From assembly GCA_030141605.1 (NCBI GenBank), contig JAQGDQ010000317.1, positions 62,001-126,000 on the forward strand: DNA of 64,000 nt, in the 5' to 3' direction. A model generated the notes under the pieces. That model worked only from the letters and a program-made list of their open reading frames with translations, did no database searches and was not told where the DNA came from. Origin of the DNA: Tubiluchus corallicola (Eukaryota; Priapulida; Priapulimorpha; Priapulimorphida; Tubiluchidae). The position numbers were made by a program, and so were the translations under genes. Position 1 is the stretch's first letter. Each line of letters begins with the position of its first letter. Below, piece by piece: positions 16,456 through 43,244 of the stretch.

Positions 16456-18261
16456 TTACAGCATAGTGGAATGGTGTACAGTGATTAAACGACTAAGTCC
16501 AGGTATTACTTGTCCCTGAATAGCTCCGTATTCAATTTTTTCTCCATCTACAGTCATTAGTCTTTCTCCCAGATCTGACAAACAGTCCATATTCGGTTCA
16601 ATGCGAAATGCATGTGCTGGGAAAACTTCAAAATATGGAGAGTTTATGTGTCCGCCAGAATCCAGTTCCACAAACAGACTAAGTAAAGCACTCCGAGGTA
16701 TGCCCTTACGGACTATGCACACGTGTATAACACCGTCGTCAAACTCGGCAAAAGGCACAAACCTTGAGTCATTGCTTAAATGTGACTGGTAAACGGCACA
16801 GACCAGCACAAACTCCCCTTCAATGATAGTCCATGTATCAGGTACTGGTTGTTCAAGTGGAACAAGATGCTCAGTTTCAGGTGACATATGTGATGGTACT
16901 GCTTCAGAAGATCCTGAACATGAAGACTGAGTGCTGTCATAATAATGTGACTTGCAACTATTTCCTTGAGAGTGATACACAAGGTTGTGATCAATATTAT
17001 TCCCTGTATTAACTTCTCCATTCATTTTTGCTTCCTCTATGTTATGTAATTGATCTTCTGGAAGGTTCCAGTAACTCAAATGGGAATGAGGCATATGAGC
17101 CTTATGATCCAACTTTGAAGGTACACTCGCTGATGTACGTAAAAGACTACTCGGGAATATTCTGTTTGAGCCAACTGTTTTACTGCGCTTCAGAACATCC
17201 GTATGAACATCTGCCTGTTTACGCATGTAGTCACTCACTGGCAAAAAGGACACACGCCCAGTATATGTGCGCAAATCTAATATTCGGGCTAAAGCTCCTA
17301 GGGTAAACCTAGCGCTGCCGAAGTTCCTGAACTTTTCGCTCTCAATGTCAACATCAGACACAATGCCCCATGCCACAGATAAACATGAGTATAACTGTCT
17401 TCCACTTGATAAATGAACTCCAACAATATCCATTGGAGATGGATTTCCTTGAGCTATTATTAATGCTGAATAAAAGGCAAAATTCTCCTTTACCGGCAAA
17501 CCTGCATTGTAATTGATAGCTGCACAAACAGCATTTCCTGAGCCACCAGGCAACATTCCTATAGGTGTTTTAATTGCACTTTCCCAATCTGACCTTTGCA
17601 TTAATCCTTGCAGCACTTCATGAAGGAGGCCATCTCCAGAACAGATGACAATGCCATCCCAACTTGTCAGAGCAAGAGTTTTGCAAATTTCAATTGCATG
17701 ACCCTGATGATCAGTGACAACAACTTGATAATAAATATCAGCTTCTGCAAAAATAGGTGCTGCCTTTTCTTTAAAAATGGTCAAAGCTCGACCTTGCCCC
17801 CCTGCTGGGTTGACTAGAACCAACATTTTACGAAGAGGAAGCTGCATGCTTAACTTCAACTCTTTCCCCAAATGAATAGCACGTATCATGCTAATAATTG
17901 CTGTTCTCCATTCCGCTGCAACAGTTGCATTTTCTCTGTATGAATCATATTTATTTACTGTAAGTGTAATTAGTTTCCTCCTCTTAATCATGCCACCAGC
18001 ACTTTTTTTCTTCTTTGGATAAGCATATACTGTAAAATAAGCTTGTGTGTCAGCCGCATGACGACCCTTCATACAATGGCACCCAACACAGTCGCTAAAT
18101 TTTATTTCATCAATCGTGTCAATTACTTTGTCTGATGAAGAAATATTAAAGATGACAATCGCAGTTGCTGTTAAACGAATTTCATATAATTTACGGCTCG
18201 GATAAACAAATACCTTCTCACTCAAAATTCCATCAATGTGTGAATTTAAGCATGCATCCAT
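16456..18261 (-). CDS. SPHK: Sphingosine kinase, single coding exon, 601 aa
   Basis: Phosphorylates sphingosine to sphingosine-1-phosphate using ATP, controlling the ceramide/S1P balance at membranes. The diacylglycerol-kinase-like catalytic core is intact: nucleotide-binding LVNPAGGQGRA (about residues 149-159), the catalytic SGDGLLHEV loop (208-216), LPGGSGNAV (237-245), the substrate-side SVAWGIVSDVDIESEKFRNF segment and a C-terminal EFDDGVIHVCIVRKG...FRIEP...DGE block, as in SPHK1/2. The N-terminal 140 residues look PH-like, as in longer SPHK forms. A low-complexity Ser/His-rich insert of about 140 residues sits before the last domain, as in SPHK2. I start at the ATG at 18261 (context AACATGG); the open frame continues seven codons upstream only to a TTG. 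The coding region has no intron, but a 5' UTR intron is likely (acceptor at 18330). It lies between the arms of the large inverted repeat. SPHK1 versus SPHK2 cannot be assigned. Confidence 0.93.
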   Translation of the reverse strand: MDACLNSHIDGILSEKVFVYPSRKLYEIRLTATAIVIFNISSSDKVIDTIDEIKFSDCVGCHCMKGRHAADTQAYFTVYAYPKKKKSAGGMIKRRKLITLTVNKYDSYRENATVAAEWRTAIISMIRAIHLGKELKLSMQLPLRKMLVLVNPAGGQGRALTIFKEKAAPIFAEADIYYQVVVTDHQGHAIEICKTLALTSWDGIVICSGDGLLHEVLQGLMQRSDWESAIKTPIGMLPGGSGNAVCAAINYNAGLPVKENFAFYSALIIAQGNPSPMDIVGVHLSSGRQLYSCLSVAWGIVSDVDIESEKFRNFGSARFTLGALARILDLRTYTGRVSFLPVSDYMRKQADVHTDVLKRSKTVGSNRIFPSSLLRTSASVPSKLDHKAHMPHSHLSYWNLPEDQLHNIEEAKMNGEVNTGNNIDHNLVYHSQGNSCKSHYYDSTQSSCSGSSEAVPSHMSPETEHLVPLEQPVPDTWTIIEGEFVLVCAVYQSHLSNDSRFVPFAEFDDGVIHVCIVRKGIPRSALLSLFVELDSGGHINSPYFEVFPAHAFRIEPNMDCLSDLGERLMTVDGEKIEYGAIQGQVIPGLSRLITVHHSTML

Positions 18262-18329
18262 GTTTACATAGACTTTGAGCAAAAGAGTTGAGCAGAGTAG
18301 TTTTGATCTTCGAGTTGTTCAACCGAGTC
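18262..18329 (-). promoter_or_regulatory. 5' UTR exon end with an AUG-stop minimal uORF
   Basis: A TTTCAG acceptor precedes a 68-nt leader to the sphingosine kinase ATG. In it, ATGTAA (18269-18264) is a start codon followed directly by a stop, 2 nt before the main ATG at 18261. Start-stop elements of this kind are known to stall or divert ribosomes in other eukaryotic genes; its effect here is inference. Confidence 0.55.
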
Positions 18330-21844: not shown

Positions 21845-24045
21845 TTTGGCACTTATTAGAATCCAGGTCCTGAGCGATTGCCTATTTCGATATGGTTGCT
21901 TGGTGGATTATGACGAGCCGTGCTGCGCATATGATACGACGGTTGATTAGCCCGAGTTTTACTTGTGGTGGAATAAGTTAATGAAATAATACTGGCCAGA
22001 GTTTCTGCTATCCACAAGAAAGGTGAAAGAGACTTAGCAAAAAATTACAGACCTATCACTAGTATCAGTCTGACATCAGTTGTTTGTAAATTGCTAGAAC
22101 TAGTAGAAGGAATACTAAGGGATAAAATCTACAACTTCATTACTGAACATAGTCTCATTTGTGATAGTCAACATGACTTCAGAACTGGCAGATCTTGTAC
22201 TACCAATTTATTAGTTTCTCTTGAAGAATGGATGGATTTACTTGAGAATAAGGGCGAAGTTGATGTTATCTATTTACTTTTTAAAAGCATTTGATCGAGT
22301 ACCCCACCTAAGACTTCTTCAAAAACTTGAATCATACGGAATTTGTGGTCACCTGCTAACATGGATTAATAGTTTTCTCTGTTGGGAGAAGGCAATGTGT
22401 AGTAGTTAATGGGCAAGAATTAGAATTTGCAAATGTGACCAGTGGCATACCACAGGGAAGTGTTCTTGGACCTATTTTATTCACAATTTACATAAATGAT
22501 CTTCTTGAAGTTTTCAACTGCGGTAAAAGCCTGTTTGCAGATGACACTAAAATATATGGTAAAGCTTGCTGCCTGGATGAGTTTGAGGTCATGCATAATA
22601 ACATTAACTATGCCGACCAATGGTGTCGCCATTGGCAAATGGAATTTAACACCGAAAAATGTAAGCTCCTGACTATTGGAAGGCATGATACTGCAGGTTG
22701 TACATATAAAATGGCACATGGACAAGGTTCTAAAGAAATTATAAGCGTCACAGAAGAAAAAGATCTGGGTATCACCTTTGACAGTATGCTTAATTTTCAA
22801 ACATATAAACAATGTTGTCAATATAAAGCACGTGGAAGTCTGACTTTAATCAAATGTAGTTTCTCTTATCTTGACGGATTTATGGTGACCAAGCTATATA
22901 AATCAATGGTTCATCCTATATTGGATGATGGTGATGTGATTTGGAGCCCAAATCGTCAAGACATGGTAAGGAAAATTGAAAGTATACAACGTCGAGCTAC
23001 TAGACTTGTACCTGCCATTTCTCATTTACCATATGTTGCAAGACTTGAGATTCTGGGCCTTACAACTCTGAAGTACAGACGCACAAGACAAGATATAATC
23101 CAAACATTTCGTATTCTTAAAGGTATAGAAACCATCAACAGTGAAATATTTTTCCATCGACAGACATATCATGGTACCAGAGGTCACTCCTACAAAATCA
23201 AGAAGAGAACAGTTCCCCAAAGGTAGAGCAGAAGAAAATTCACATTTGCAAGGCGAGTAATTAATGAGTGGAACACGTTGCCTGATCATGTAGTTCAAGC
23301 CTCCAATCCTGCCCAGTGTAAGTCTCGTCTCGATAGATATTGGAAAAACAATCCTGAAAAATATATAGACCTCAGGTTGCCACAATGGCAACAAGAAACC
23401 CTGTGCTACACTTCATGATTGCAGTGCGGCCACCTATTTTTGATCATTTTTTATATTGATGAAGTAAACAAGGAAGAGTGGAGAGGTCCATAAGCTATTT
23501 ATGCTTAACCTCTATCCTTCGACGGTAACGGAATTAATAGAATATAAAAGTCCACTAAGTTTACCATTTTGTTTTTATAAAGTACATCTTCATTATCATT
23601 GCCATTGGCATTATAATACTATTAATAACTAAGCGTGCCACAATAAGATTTTAATTTCCACAGTCGTCGTGTTAATAAACGTTTCATTTACGTATCTTTG
23701 AACTTTTATACCTAATTTTTAATGTTATGCTCTCAGACGATTTTTTAGCCACGCGCATTGTCTGACACAGCAGGTTGTTTACATTATATTTTGGTCGACG
23801 GGTGGACTGAATGTACACTTAAAAAGTAAAATTACATCGACGGAGATGATGGAAAACGCAAGTTTTTCTTGTTAAATTTTAGTCAAGGGTGGGCTGGATG
23901 CCAAACCACTGAAAAAACCAGCTGACGCGCAAGCAATCGCAAGACCAGCGTAGATCGTCATGTTGCATTGAGCAACAATATCGAATAGGTTATCGCTCGC
24001 CGAAAATCAAGCTGGACCTGGATTCTAATAGAGTGCCAATTTTTT
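21845..24045. mobile_element. Segment bounded by about 60-bp inverted repeats, containing a LINE
   Basis: The left boundary reads TTGGCACTTATTAGAATCC then AGGTCC and, after a gap, TATTTCGATATGGTTGCT (to about 21900). The reverse complement at 24045-23970 gives TTGGCACTCTATTAGAATCC, AGGTCC, TATTCGATATTGTTGCT. This looks like the ends of a DNA transposon or foldback element, with the LINE at 21985-23420 inside. The right end stops about 150 bp before the NEK2 start codon. Confidence 0.6.
21985..23420 (+). pseudogene. CR1/Jockey-like LINE reverse transcriptase, frameshifted
   Basis: Nearly full reverse transcriptase domain: NYRPITSISLTSVVCKLLE, HDFRTGRSCTTNLLVSLEEW, then after a frameshift near 22270 KAFDRVPHLRLLQKLESYGI, after a second near 22385 TSGIPQGSVLGPILFTIYIN and SLFADDTKIYG (catalytic FADD), DLGITFDSMLNF, MVHPILDDGDVIWSP, IQRRATRL, and a tail up to NEWNTLPDHV with an in-frame TAG at about 23224. 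At least two frameshifts and one stop make it inactive, but it is much less decayed than the other two LINE pieces. Endonuclease ORF and poly(A) tail not seen. Confidence 0.9.
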
Positions 24046-33744: not shown

Positions 33745-33969
33745 TTAGCAAGTTCTGCGAGGGCCTCCATGAGCTCGGTCCCATTCATCCTGCCGCCTTG
33801 CCTTTGCATCCCTATCGCCTAGCAACCAGGTTTTGTTTTTCATGTGATCTAGCTTTGCACCTTCGCTTGCATCCAACTTACATCCAATGTAATAGCCTAT
33901 GAATGGAAGTGCACATAAAGCAAGTGCAGTGCCATTAAATCTGCCTCCGGCAGGTGGTATTCTCAGCAT
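33745..33969 (-). CDS. Small mitochondrial-type membrane protein, NDUFB1-like, 74 aa (second ORF of a probable dicistron)
   Basis: Open from ATG 33969 to the stop at 33745 in one exon whose acceptor lies at 33987 (TTTTTCAG). Seen: a short basic N-terminus (MLRIPPAGGRF), one hydrophobic segment (ALALCALPFIGYYIG, about residues 15-29), then KLDASEGAKLDHMKNKTWLL and a charged tail. The pattern hydrophobic-IGCKLD followed by a basic helix with NK(S/T) resembles NDUFB1 (the MNLL accessory subunit of respiratory complex I, a single-pass inner-membrane protein of about 58 aa). That assignment rests on remembered family sequence over about 25 residues and is tentative. The ATG has A at -3. The only upstream exons visible encode a different small protein that stops 16 nt before this ATG. 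If exon 34553-34670 were skipped, exon 35192-35270 would join this frame and give an N-terminally extended form. Confidence 0.6.
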   Translation of the reverse strand: MLRIPPAGGRFNGTALALCALPFIGYYIGCKLDASEGAKLDHMKNKTWLLGDRDAKARRQDEWDRAHGGPRRTC

Positions 33970-33985
33970 TCTGAATGGTGTAACG

Positions 33986-35270
33986 TCTGAAAAATCAAAT
34001 GATGAAAGGTGCATAAAAACTACACTGAAAAATATGAAATGTCTCAACTTCAATATGAAGTTATCTTAGTTATGACTGCTTCTTAAAGGATAAAAAAAGT
34101 TCTTTTAATATAAGTTACAGGATAAATGATTGAAAAAAATATTGTGTATAGTTCACTCGTCTTAAAAGAAATTTCTATTTTTCATATTTTACTATGAAAC
34201 TACACGAAGGTTCATCATTGTATTATGTCATGTGGCTGAAAAAGTTAAATGTAATGTATAACGCACCAGAAGTATGTTGCATGATTTTGTTGTAAACACA
34301 ATTCATCAAGCTTCCGATTATTAAAAACGTTTGACACAAAAAAAGATTTCTTTAGGGTGCCAGGAGTTTTAAGAAAACTTACGTCCTTACAATGTTGCCC
34401 ACATATCATATCTATGTAGTCCAGTACATTTTTTGCACAAAATAACATAAATTTATAATGATAAGTTTTTTAGAGCATTCATTCAATAAACTGCTATCTT
34501 CTTGTTCAACTCAACCAGTCAATTTTTTATAAAGTTACAATGTTCCACTTACTATTCTAAACTTTCTTTGTCTATCTCAACAGCGAGGGTTTGATCTTTT
34601 CTGAACTGCCTCGTGTGACTCCAGTCAGCATAAATAGCGAGACCCACAATCGTAGGTACAGTAATAACGCCTAAAATTTGATGTTGTGAAATAAATTACA
34701 TTTATATAACCTTTCATTTAACCAAGCAATTAGTTTCAATGTAAGCTTCTATATAAATGATATAATCTCATGAACAAAAACACGAATGTTCCAGGTCCAC
34801 TTCTCTCTTAAAAAATTAAAGATCACTCGATCGACACTGAAAAAAGCTTTTCAAATGTGCTGAAATTTGTTTATTAAAAGTGTTATAAAGATAAGAAATA
34901 TTGTGTGGAGAGTGCAACAAGAAATTGCATAGACTATTTTATTCTTTGGCATCATAATCGATGTACTCGTAAAATAAATGATAATCGAATTTTATCTTGC
35001 CATGGATTATTAAGCAACACACCCACGCATTTATCTATCAGCCCTCAGGAGCTATAAGTAGAATGGCGATTCAACAAAACCTTGACCATTAATATTACTA
35101 CTGACTATCGTGCAAAATAAGAGCACCAAAGAAATAAACACAATAAATGGCAACGATTAATATAGGTGAGTAAACCTTTTTTGAGGCTTACCTAAATGTT
35201 TCCAGAAAAATCGAAATGGCAGCAGAAGGTACCGTGTTAAATTCGATTCTGCCGCTGATGGTGCTGCCAT
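33986..35270 (-). CDS. Unrecognised 65-aa single-pass membrane protein (first ORF of a probable dicistron)
   Basis: Exons 35192-35270 (ATG at 35270; donor GTAAGC) and 34553-34670 (acceptor TTTTAG, donor GTAAGT); the stop is TA from the second exon plus A, the first base of the third exon at 33986. The protein starts MAAPSAAESNLTRYLLLPFR, has one hydrophobic segment (HLGVITVPTIVGLAIYADW) and ends in a charged tail (RQFRKDQTLAVEIDKESLE). A short basic/aromatic N-terminus before one membrane helix is typical of small inner mitochondrial membrane proteins, but I do not recognise the family. It faintly resembles the second ORF in layout, so the two might be related. A three-codon uORF (ATG CAG TAG, 35312-35304) precedes it. 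Confidence 0.55.
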
Positions 35271-35695
35271 GCAACAGCTCAAATGCAAGTACAGGAACTA
35301 GCCCTACTGCATGCCAAAATCACAGCCCACTGCAAAAAAATGGATTTCTGGGTTATTTCCGTTCTCTTATCTGCTGTTACCTGAAAATCCAGCAAACTAA
35401 CCAAGCACACCTTATATACATAAACTGATTAGTGATTAGAATTAAAAACGTCAAGTAAATTAAGGTTTTGAGGAATTATTTGTAGTCTGAATAGTGGCGT
35501 AGGGTTTGTGGAACAACGGCAACGTCAGGCACTTTAGATGCATCCTCGAAGAAAATCCTTAAGGCGGAATTTGTAAAATTTAGCTCTACTGCCTCCCAGG
35601 TGCGAAGAAACAAATTGTTTGTGAAGAAATAAATTCACTCTACAACGCACAGAGGCTTCTTCAAATGTCAATATTCACAGGAAAGAGTATAATTA
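35271..35695. other. Promoter side of the small-protein gene; no gene seen
   Basis: Contains the leader of the minus-strand gene (a possible acceptor TTTTTTTGCAG near 35332) and otherwise no coding signal. Confidence 0.35.
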
Positions 35696-40302: not shown

Positions 40303-42090
40303 TCATTTTCTGTTGTCTTCTTTAATCATATCAGCTGCTTTTTCTGCAATCATTACGGTTGCAGCTTGGAGAGGTCCAGAGACCGTCTCTGGCATAACTG
40401 ATGCATCAGCTACCCTCAGGCCTTTAATGCCTCTTACTCTTAATCTTGGATCAACAACAGCCGTTCTGTCATTTGCTGCACCCATTTTGCACGTCCCAGA
40501 TGGATGATATATGGTAGTAGTAACCGCACGGACACAGCATTCCCAGTACAGATCACCTGTTAGCTTCTCACATCCTGGGACTTTCTGTTCCCGCAGTCGA
40601 GCCCCAACAGCTTTGAAAGCTTTTGTGTCTGCAAATTTGAGGGCCATCTTAATACCCTCCACCATCATTTTCACATCTCTGTCGTCTGCATAGTAGTTAG
40701 GATCAATTAAGGGATGATCAAAGGGATCATCAGATTGTAGCTTTATTTCTCCAATACTGTATGGATGTAGAAGAAATATTATAAACATGAAAACGTGCCT
40801 GTTGACATGCTCATCGAAGTTATATTCTATATTAAATTTCTTATCAAATCCCACAAAATCGTAAGCCAGCTCTTTGCCAAAACTTCCAGTCCCGAAAGCA
40901 CTAAAAAGTAATCCAACATCAGGAAATTTTATGTTAGGGTCAGAATGCTTTGTTTTTAGAAATGTGGCACCATCGGTAAATGTAGAAGACACTGGACCAC
41001 TTTTAAATAACTTGTACAGCCATTGGGATTTCCAGTTGTCTACGATAGATTTTGTAAAAGTCATTGGTTTGTCGATCCAAAATTCGGGAAACCAGACACC
41101 CTGATGTTCTTGCAAGTGTTTTCCGACAGGTAGATCAGAGACAGTTTCAATACCGAACTCCTTTAAATGATCAGAAACACCAATGCCAGACAACATGAGC
41201 AGATGGGGAGAACCAATGGTACCTGCAGCTAAAATAATTTCCTTCCTCGCCTTCACTATCTTTTTATCTGCCATGTGAATGAAAACAACTCCAGTAGCTC
41301 GCTTACCATCAAACAGCACTTTTATCACGTGGGCGTTAATTAGCACGTCTAGATTGTCTCTCCTTGATGCTGGTTTTAGGAATGCTTTTGATGTACTCCA
41401 CCTGGTCCCATCTTTTATGTTAGCCTGATTCTTCATTATTCTATACTGGTCTTCTCCATTGATGTCTCCAACAGCAATTCCCAACTCCTTTCCAGCCTCG
41501 ATGAAGATATCTGCCAGGGGACTTGCATGCACTTCAGAAATTGGCCATGGGCCATCATCTCCATGGTAGCCGGATTTAACGTATTCTGGATTCTGGTTAC
41601 TCTCGGATTTTTTAAAGTATGGCAAGACGTCATCATATGACCAGCCTTTTGCACCCATATTTTCCCACAGATCAAAATCTTCCTTGTGGCCTCTCACATA
41701 ATTCATCACATTTATGCTGCTTGAGCCACCCAACATTTTTCCTCTCGGCCACATACTTCGCTTGTTTTCACACGCATTGCAGCCATGTTTTTGAGGCACC
41801 GTTTTATATTTCCAATCCTGCTTTGTGTTTCGCAGGAAACCGTGGTTACCGGGAATATCAACGTCCGGATTGTGGGTATCTCGGCCACCGGCTTCAAGGA
41901 TTAGCACTTTGTCCGAATTTTCAGATAGTCGATTAGCAAGAACGCAGCCGGCGCTTCCTGCACCGATTATTACATAATCATATTCTTTGTCGGCATCTTT
42001 GGCAATAACGTAATCATCTTTTACATTGTAGAGCACGTATAACGCTGCTAGTACCGCAACTCCGATAACCACAACAAGGTTAGACGACAT
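40303..42090 (-). CDS. GMC-family FAD-dependent oxidoreductase (choline/glucose dehydrogenase-like), intronless, 595 aa
   Basis: GMC enzymes oxidise an alcohol or sugar hydroxyl using bound FAD. Seen: an N-terminal signal-anchor ([17 protein letters not shown], residues 5-21), ADP-binding GAGSAG in [18 protein letters not shown] (38-54), the EAGG motif (66-69), GMC signature 1 [20 protein letters not shown] (115-134), signature 2 in [17 protein letters not shown], the catalytic His in [11 protein letters not shown], and the C-terminal [11 protein letters not shown]...NP-equivalent block. Length is normal for the animal/bacterial choline dehydrogenase group. The ATG at 42090 is the first in frame and gives the membrane anchor. 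The exact substrate cannot be told from sequence; insect glucose dehydrogenase and choline dehydrogenase relatives look alike at this level. No introns, unlike NEK2, WDR81 and RAP1 in the window, which may reflect retroposition or simply an intron-poor family. Confidence 0.93.
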
Positions 42091-42678: not shown

Positions 42679-42754
42679 AGTTATAGGGGTTTTGGACATG
42701 GGGATTTTAGACATGACGCTATTTCGACACAATCATTTTGGACGCAGGTTATCT

Positions 42755-43045
42755 CGACACATAGGACATTTGGACACAAAGACATTTAGACAAGACATTT
42801 GGACACATAGGACATTTGAACACAAGGTAATTTGGACTTGTAGGACATTTAGACACGTAAGACATTAATTTGGACACAAAGACATTTGGACACATGGGAC
42901 ATTTGGACACAAGGTAATTTGGACTCGTAGGACATTTGGACACGTAAGATATTTGGACACATTGGACATTTGGGCACAAAGTAATTTGTTTGGACAAGCG
43001 GGACATTTGGACATTGGGGTATTTGGACATATAGGTAATTTGCAG
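42755..43045. repeat. Degenerate minisatellite, GACATTTGGACACA-type unit
   Basis: About 15-25-bp units with the words GGACATTTGG, GGACACA, TAGGACATTT repeated about a dozen times. Confidence 0.85.
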
Positions 43046-43244
43046 ATATTTAATAGTTATATTAACCCAAAATATATGTATGCCATTTTTTCCAACTTTT
43101 CTATTTGTGCCATTTGTACCTGTGGCATTTTTACCTACACTCGTCATTGACTCATTAGGCTGATGGTAATGCGTTGAAAAGGGTTGTGCACACCACCTTC
43201 ATATTCCAAAAAAATGAAAATGATTTAACTATATAGTTATATAT

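What the first reader, a model, noticed from the sequence alone, without database searches (positions are those of the whole stretch)
33745..35270. Apparent dicistronic gene for two small mitochondrial-type membrane proteins
Three minus-strand exons with good splice sites give a 65-aa single-pass protein whose stop codon is split across the last junction (TA|A). After it come 16 nt and an ATG with A at -3 that opens a 74-aa NDUFB1-like single-pass protein. No separate promoter-side exon for the second protein is visible. Two microproteins of similar layout on one mRNA suggests coupled production of partners in one membrane complex, or a duplicated gene. Skipping the 118-nt middle exon instead fuses exon 1 in frame to the second protein, so splicing could switch between two separate proteins and one extended protein.
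Basis: partly seen in the sequence, partly recalled or inferred. Interest (0 to 1): 0.75.

Follow-up and report, generated by a model that had tools for sequence, protein, structure and literature searches.

The report
Two small mitochondrial proteins, one mRNA
A gene of what is probably a priapulid-like marine worm appears to carry two small proteins on one messenger RNA, an unknown membrane protein followed by a subunit of mitochondrial complex I, a layout already reported for the same subunit in flies and a tick.

Summary
The exons, the split TA|A stop, the 16-nt gap and the 74-aa second ORF are in the sequence as described. ORF2 is best read as a divergent NDUFB1 (MNLL) subunit of complex I: z 8.8 against human NDUFB1, next best 1.9 among 20 other targets, though below Pfam's cut-off. 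ORF1 matches nothing searched and is not a copy of ORF2. A sphingosine kinase in the window pairs with Priapulus, so the host is probably a priapulid relative (Ecdysozoa). The layout has a published precedent: Drosophila's NDUFB1 gene, CG18624, has a 54-aa conserved upstream ORF, Ka/Ks 0.11, the pair traced to a tick. Sloth1/Sloth2 is an experimentally studied two-microprotein mitochondrial mRNA whose reporters support leaky scanning. Start contexts here fit that: T at -3 for ORF1, A at -3 for ORF2. New caveat: an acceptor 38 nt upstream, no weaker by pyrimidine count, would fuse both ORFs into one 158-aa protein. No RNA and no relative of ORF1 could be examined. Verdict: probably a real dicistronic gene, a new member of a known kind. 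Whether ORF1 is the arthropod peptide's ortholog is the open, testable point.

The parts
35192..35270 (-). Exon 1, coding part of ORF1 (residues 1-26 and the first base of codon 27)
   Evidence: 5' end of the transcript not known
34671..35191 (-). Intron 1 (GTAAGC...TTTTAG)
   Evidence: GC 0.31; 7 pyrimidines of 14 before the acceptor
34553..34670 (-). Exon 2, rest of ORF1 with most of the hydrophobic stretch; ends in TA of the stop codon
33987..34552 (-). Intron 2 (GTAAGT...TTTTTCAG); if retained, ORF1 stops at TAG
   Evidence: GC 0.28
33970..33986 (-). Start of exon 3: A completing the TAA stop, then the 16-nt spacer
33745..33969 (-). ORF2, 74 aa with stop, NDUFB1/MNLL-like
33987..34024 (-). 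38 nt that become exon if acceptor 34024 is used; fuses ORF1 and ORF2 in frame (158 aa)
35304..35312 (-). Two-codon upstream ORF (ATG CAG TAG), present if the transcript starts upstream of it

Best explanation
One nuclear gene makes a spliced, dicistronic mRNA. The first ORF encodes a 65-aa single-pass microprotein and the second encodes complex I accessory subunit NDUFB1. Some scanning ribosomes start at the weak first ATG; others pass it and start 214 nt downstream at the better ATG of NDUFB1 (leaky scanning), which ties the amount of NDUFB1 to ORF1. Shown: the sequence layout, the start contexts and the NDUFB1 likeness. Inferred: the splicing, the shared mRNA, translation of both ORFs, mitochondrial location and a functional link.
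For: Layout confirmed. ORF2 against human NDUFB1: 0 of 500 segment-wise shuffles reach the score, z 8.8, while the next of 21 targets is z 1.9. 9 of 9 PDB matches at E up to 10 are NDUFB1, though each at E 0.36-0.64. Exons stand out in GC and the joint model is rare in the window. A consensus donor GTAAGT sits exactly at the ORF1 stop, which a gene ending in exon 2 would not need. Start contexts: tgttgcATGG for ORF1, ttcagaATGC for ORF2; one ATG between, with T at -3. Precedents: fly CG18624 upstream ORF of 54 aa, Ka/Ks 0.11, the pair seen in ESTs down to the tick Boophilus; NDUFB1 coding sequence in one exon in two Drosophila species and Anopheles, as here; Sloth1/2 reporters support leaky scanning. 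The host is probably an ecdysozoan like those arthropods.
Against: No transcript, ribosome or protein data. ORF1 has no detectable relative and only weak codon evidence. I could not see the arthropod peptide's letters, so its kinship with ORF1 is untested. The scarcity of ATGs between the two starts is not significant (1 seen; P 0.10 and 0.37). The acceptor of exon 2 is weak, and a fused 158-aa reading is equally open.
Confidence: 0.58

Rival explanations
1. ORF1 and NDUFB1 are two transcription units, or one pre-mRNA cut into two mRNAs (alternative promoter in intron 2, or spliced-leader trans-splicing at the TTTTTCAG before exon 3). ORF1 then ends at TAG in an unspliced last exon.
For: ORF1 keeps its stop if intron 2 is retained, and the acceptor before exon 3 could take any upstream exon or a leader. 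An ATG at 34014 in intron 2 opens the ORF2 frame (89 aa) in unspliced RNA.
Against: A consensus donor at the stop codon would be a coincidence. The published arthropod pairs are on single transcripts or ESTs. No spliced leader was sought in this genome, so this rival is little tested.
Confidence: 0.15
2. The main product is one fused protein: 158 aa with two hydrophobic stretches through acceptor 34024, or 106 or 117 aa by skipping exon 2.
For: The joins are open and in frame. Acceptor 34024 has 11 pyrimidines of 14 against 10 for 33986. Codon score 25.5 bits for the 158-aa reading. The extra 18 codons score above composition shuffles (p 0.049). A deposited pig NDUFB1 chain is 135 residues with NDUFB1 at 78-135.
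Against: The other 8 NDUFB1 chains are 54-58 residues. The extra 18 codons add only 0.1 bits. Frame agreement is expected about one time in three.
Confidence: 0.12
3. ORF1 is only a translational brake on NDUFB1; its peptide has no job.
For: ORF1 ends 16 nt upstream and has no family found.
Against: It has a membrane-type hydrophobic stretch. The fly upstream ORF is under strong purifying selection, if it is the same peptide.
Confidence: 0.12
4. ORF1 and ORF2 are tandem duplicates.
For: Similar size and layout; 44 of 196 annotated fly bicistronic genes pair homologous ORFs.
Against: No similarity above shuffles (z 0.33 for ORF2 against ORF1), and neither ORF2 nor NDUFB1 is among the 8 best of 21 targets printed for ORF1.
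Confidence: 0.03

Closest known systems
Drosophila CG18624 (ND-MNLL, NDUFB1) with its conserved-peptide upstream ORF (Hayden and Bosco 2008, PMC2276209)
   Same: A 54-aa ORF precedes NDUFB1 on one transcript; the pair is traced to a tick EST; the fly NDUFB1 coding sequence is one exon.
Sloth1/Sloth2 bicistronic gene (PMC9681215)
   Same: Two small single-pass mitochondrial proteins, short spacer, weaker first and better second start.
   Different: Those are complex III assembly factors (orthologs of SMIM4 and C12orf73); the spacer is 5 nt; the pair shows 27% similarity. ORF1 and ORF2 hit neither Pfam family.
NDUFB1 / MNLL subunit (PF08040)
   Same: Shared core around IGC.LD......L....NK, one hydrophobic stretch.
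   Different: ORF2 is longer than the 54-58 residue chains and scores below the Pfam cut-off.

Membership tests
NDUFB1 / MNLL (PF08040) | Profile score above the curated cut-off of 27 bits | tested here: not met
   13.5 bits, E 0.058
NDUFB1 / MNLL (PF08040) | Specific pairwise likeness to known NDUFB1 over other small proteins | tested here: met
   z 8.8 against a next best of 1.9 of 21 targets; 9 of 9 PDB hits are NDUFB1 but each at E 0.36-0.64
NDUFB1 / MNLL (PF08040) | Only NDUFB1 candidate in the genome | tested here: inconclusive
   One other weak PF08040 hit, 19.1 bits, below cut-off, read as chance. The same search did not list ORF2 itself, so it could miss another divergent copy.
Conserved upstream ORF of NDUFB1 (fly CG18624 type) | ORF of similar length upstream of NDUFB1 in the same mature mRNA | tested here: inconclusive
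   Layout present in DNA; mRNA not seen
Conserved upstream ORF of NDUFB1 (fly CG18624 type) | Amino-acid similarity to the arthropod peptide | not testable with these tools
Sloth1/Sloth2 | Belongs to UPF0640 (SMIM4) and DUF4516 (C12orf73) | tested here: not met
   Neither family listed for ORF1 or ORF2 at E up to 10, with HMMER's filters on; the recalled human proteins hit these families
Spliced-leader operon | Leader added at the second ORF's acceptor | not testable with these tools
   No RNA data

The most novel reading that the evidence does not exclude
ORF1 is the ortholog of the conserved peptide encoded upstream of NDUFB1 in flies and a tick. An unnamed, ancient mitochondrial inner-membrane microprotein would then have been made together with NDUFB1 on one mRNA since the last common ancestor of arthropods and priapulids, perhaps as an assembly factor rather than a subunit, with splicing able to fuse the two.
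Probability: 0.35. Interest if true: 0.6.

Novelty: new member of a known kind. Interest (0 to 1): 0.4.

Why it matters
If ORF1 is the arthropod peptide, a two-protein mRNA has been kept since early in the history of moulting animals, and its first product is an uncharacterised candidate for complex I assembly or dosage control. Because the fly complex I structure reports no subunits of its own beyond the mammalian set, an assembly factor is the natural first guess, as with Sloth1/2 for complex III. It can be tested directly in Drosophila.

Tried and rejected
Duplicate-gene idea: ORF1 against ORF2 gave no signal. Named candidates for ORF1: of 20 human small proteins plus ORF2, the best was PET117 at z 2.1, p 0.04, not significant over 21 comparisons. 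MbhE (Pfam E 0.005, 17.3 bits against a cut-off of 27) was set aside as below cut-off and, from memory, an archaeal hydrogenase subunit. Homologue searches for ORF1 and ORF2 in the large protein set found no candidate sharing three words. In viral contigs ORF1 found nothing and ORF2 one 21-residue match, L001, taken as chance. An NDUFB1 alignment found no relative in prokaryote genome contigs or viral contigs. Structure of ORF2 alone had mean pLDDT 58.7, so no fold search was made. No COX1 match in the assembly, so no mitochondrial placement. Rfam and tRNA scans of the window were empty. NDUFB1 passages in PMC4965872 concern Ndufb11 only. Literature: searches on NDUFB1 or MNLL with dicistronic, bicistronic, uORF, smORF or microprotein showed no report of this pair other than PMC2276209, found through CG18624; some searches listed only 20 of 330, 15 of 500 and 12 of 270 papers. 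A search on operons and sponge genomes, made before the host was placed, led nowhere (10 of 175 listed).

Papers seen: PMC9681215 abstract, outline and sections 5 and 11; PMC2276209 passages, abstract and outline, and section 5 part 1 of 2; passages only of PMC10036122, PMC551531, PMC2241641, PMC4965872, PMC7260771; all others search listings with starts of abstracts.

Full report
What is there. The script reproduces every coordinate of the finding on the minus strand: exon 1 35270-35192, exon 2 34670-34553, exon 3 from 33986; ORF1 65 aa ending TA|A; 16 nt; ORF2 74 aa from 33969. Skipping exon 2 gives 106 aa. Three things were missed. ORF1 ends at the same residue even if intron 2 stays in, because the donor GTAAGT overlaps a TAG. 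An acceptor at 34024, 38 nt upstream, joins exon 2 in frame to ORF2 for 158 aa. One at 34019 joins exon 1 in frame to ORF2 for 117 aa. By pyrimidine count in 14 positions, 34024 (11) is no weaker than 33986 (10), while the acceptor of exon 2 has only 7.

Is it more than chance? I asked how many other acceptor-like sites in the window have a three-exon ORF of 60 aa or more upstream. A first run with stricter pyrimidine limits missed the target, so I loosened them: 28 of 361 other sites have any such ORF, 11 with at least the target's codon score, and 3 also with a hydrophobic stretch of 1.5 or more (target 1.71). Of those 3, two are these exons with other acceptors and one sits in a long ORF near 671 that was in the training set. 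Exons have GC 0.42-0.48 against 0.28-0.31 in the introns. ORF1's codon score by itself is weak (p 0.076; exon 1 alone p 0.37, exon 2 alone p 0.06), ORF2's better (p 0.017). A control stretch gave p 0.0005, but it is part of the training set, and this gene's introns were part of the background.

What ORF2 is. Pfam's MNLL profile matches at 13.5 bits, half the cut-off. The PDB search at E up to 10 returns 9 sequences, all NDUFB1, none significant alone. Against 20 recalled human proteins and ORF1, with shuffles that keep the composition of the N part, membrane part and C part apart, NDUFB1 stands alone at z 8.8. The aligned core is IGC.LD......L....NK, and chains 8b9z and 8ba0, fly from memory, align over 33 residues. 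I take ORF2 as a divergent NDUFB1. A whole-genome search found one copy of ORF2, and the Pfam profile found no convincing other NDUFB1, though that search is not sensitive enough to list ORF2 itself.

What ORF1 is. A 65-aa protein with one hydrophobic stretch (best 19-residue mean hydropathy 1.54; human NDUFB1 gives 1.23). Pfam above cut-off, the PDB at significance, the large protein set and the viral contig set hold no relative, and at E up to 1 the genome holds only its own two exons. It is not similar to ORF2.

Whose genome. The assembly has 343.5 Mb in 2344 contigs. The uninterrupted sphingosine kinase ORF at 16459-18282 has Priapulus caudatus as its best match, 496 bits against 414 for the next, in a search that scored a capped 7990 candidates. 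It pairs with Priapulus at 93/93 support in a tree of the window protein and 13 of the 120 listed hits, just under the starred level, with 45% identity over 512 columns. So the host is probably a priapulid or near relative, an ecdysozoan (lineage).

How it most likely works. The first ATG has T at -3, the second has A at -3, and one ATG with T at -3 lies between. That resembles the arrangement for which reporter tests support leaky scanning in Sloth1/Sloth2. The scarcity of ATGs between the starts is not significant. Sixteen nucleotides is little room for re-initiation after a 65-codon ORF (general knowledge), which also favours leaky scanning.

What is known. Hayden and Bosco list CG18624, the fly NDUFB1 gene, with a 54-aa upstream ORF under purifying selection (Ka/Ks 0.11, p below 0.0001; main ORF 0.06), and name Boophilus microplus as the most distant organism with the pair in an EST. 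The NDUFB1 coding sequence is one exon in two Drosophila species and Anopheles, as here. Passages of the fly complex I structure paper give 43 subunits with no accessory subunit unique to the fly, so the fly peptide is not a visible structural subunit. The kind of gene is therefore known. What would be new is its presence outside arthropods and, if orthologous, the age of the pair. I could not read the supplementary peptide sequences, so orthology stays a guess at about one in three.

Limits. No RNA, no ribosome data and no second scalidophoran genome were available. Searches of the genome for the Sloth families did not complete.

Noticed in passing
window 33987-34024, minus strand: Alternative acceptors at 34024 (158-aa fusion) and 34019 (117-aa fusion with exon 1); an ATG at 34014 also opens the ORF2 frame (89 aa) in unspliced RNA.
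   Followed up: partly
window 35304-35418, minus strand: A two-codon upstream ORF (ATG CAG TAG) 42 nt before the ORF1 start, and a TATATAAG string at 35411-35418.
   Followed up: no
window 16459-18282, minus strand: Sphingosine kinase in one uninterrupted ORF of 608 codons, nearest to Priapulus among the hits scored.
   Followed up: yes
window 40303-42090, minus strand: Uninterrupted 595-aa ORF that looks like a GMC oxidoreductase (named from memory, not searched), with a low-complexity CPNV-type repeat ORF beside it at 42749-43147.
   Followed up: no
window 22435-23226, plus strand: ORF that looks like a fragment of a non-LTR reverse transcriptase (from memory, not searched).
   Followed up: no
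PDB chain 8uep_1f: A deposited pig NDUFB1 chain is 135 residues long with NDUFB1 at 78-135, so a long N-terminal extension is recorded in a mammal.
   Followed up: no
G000 assembly: No COX1 match at E up to 0.001, so the mitochondrial genome seems absent from the assembly.
   Followed up: no
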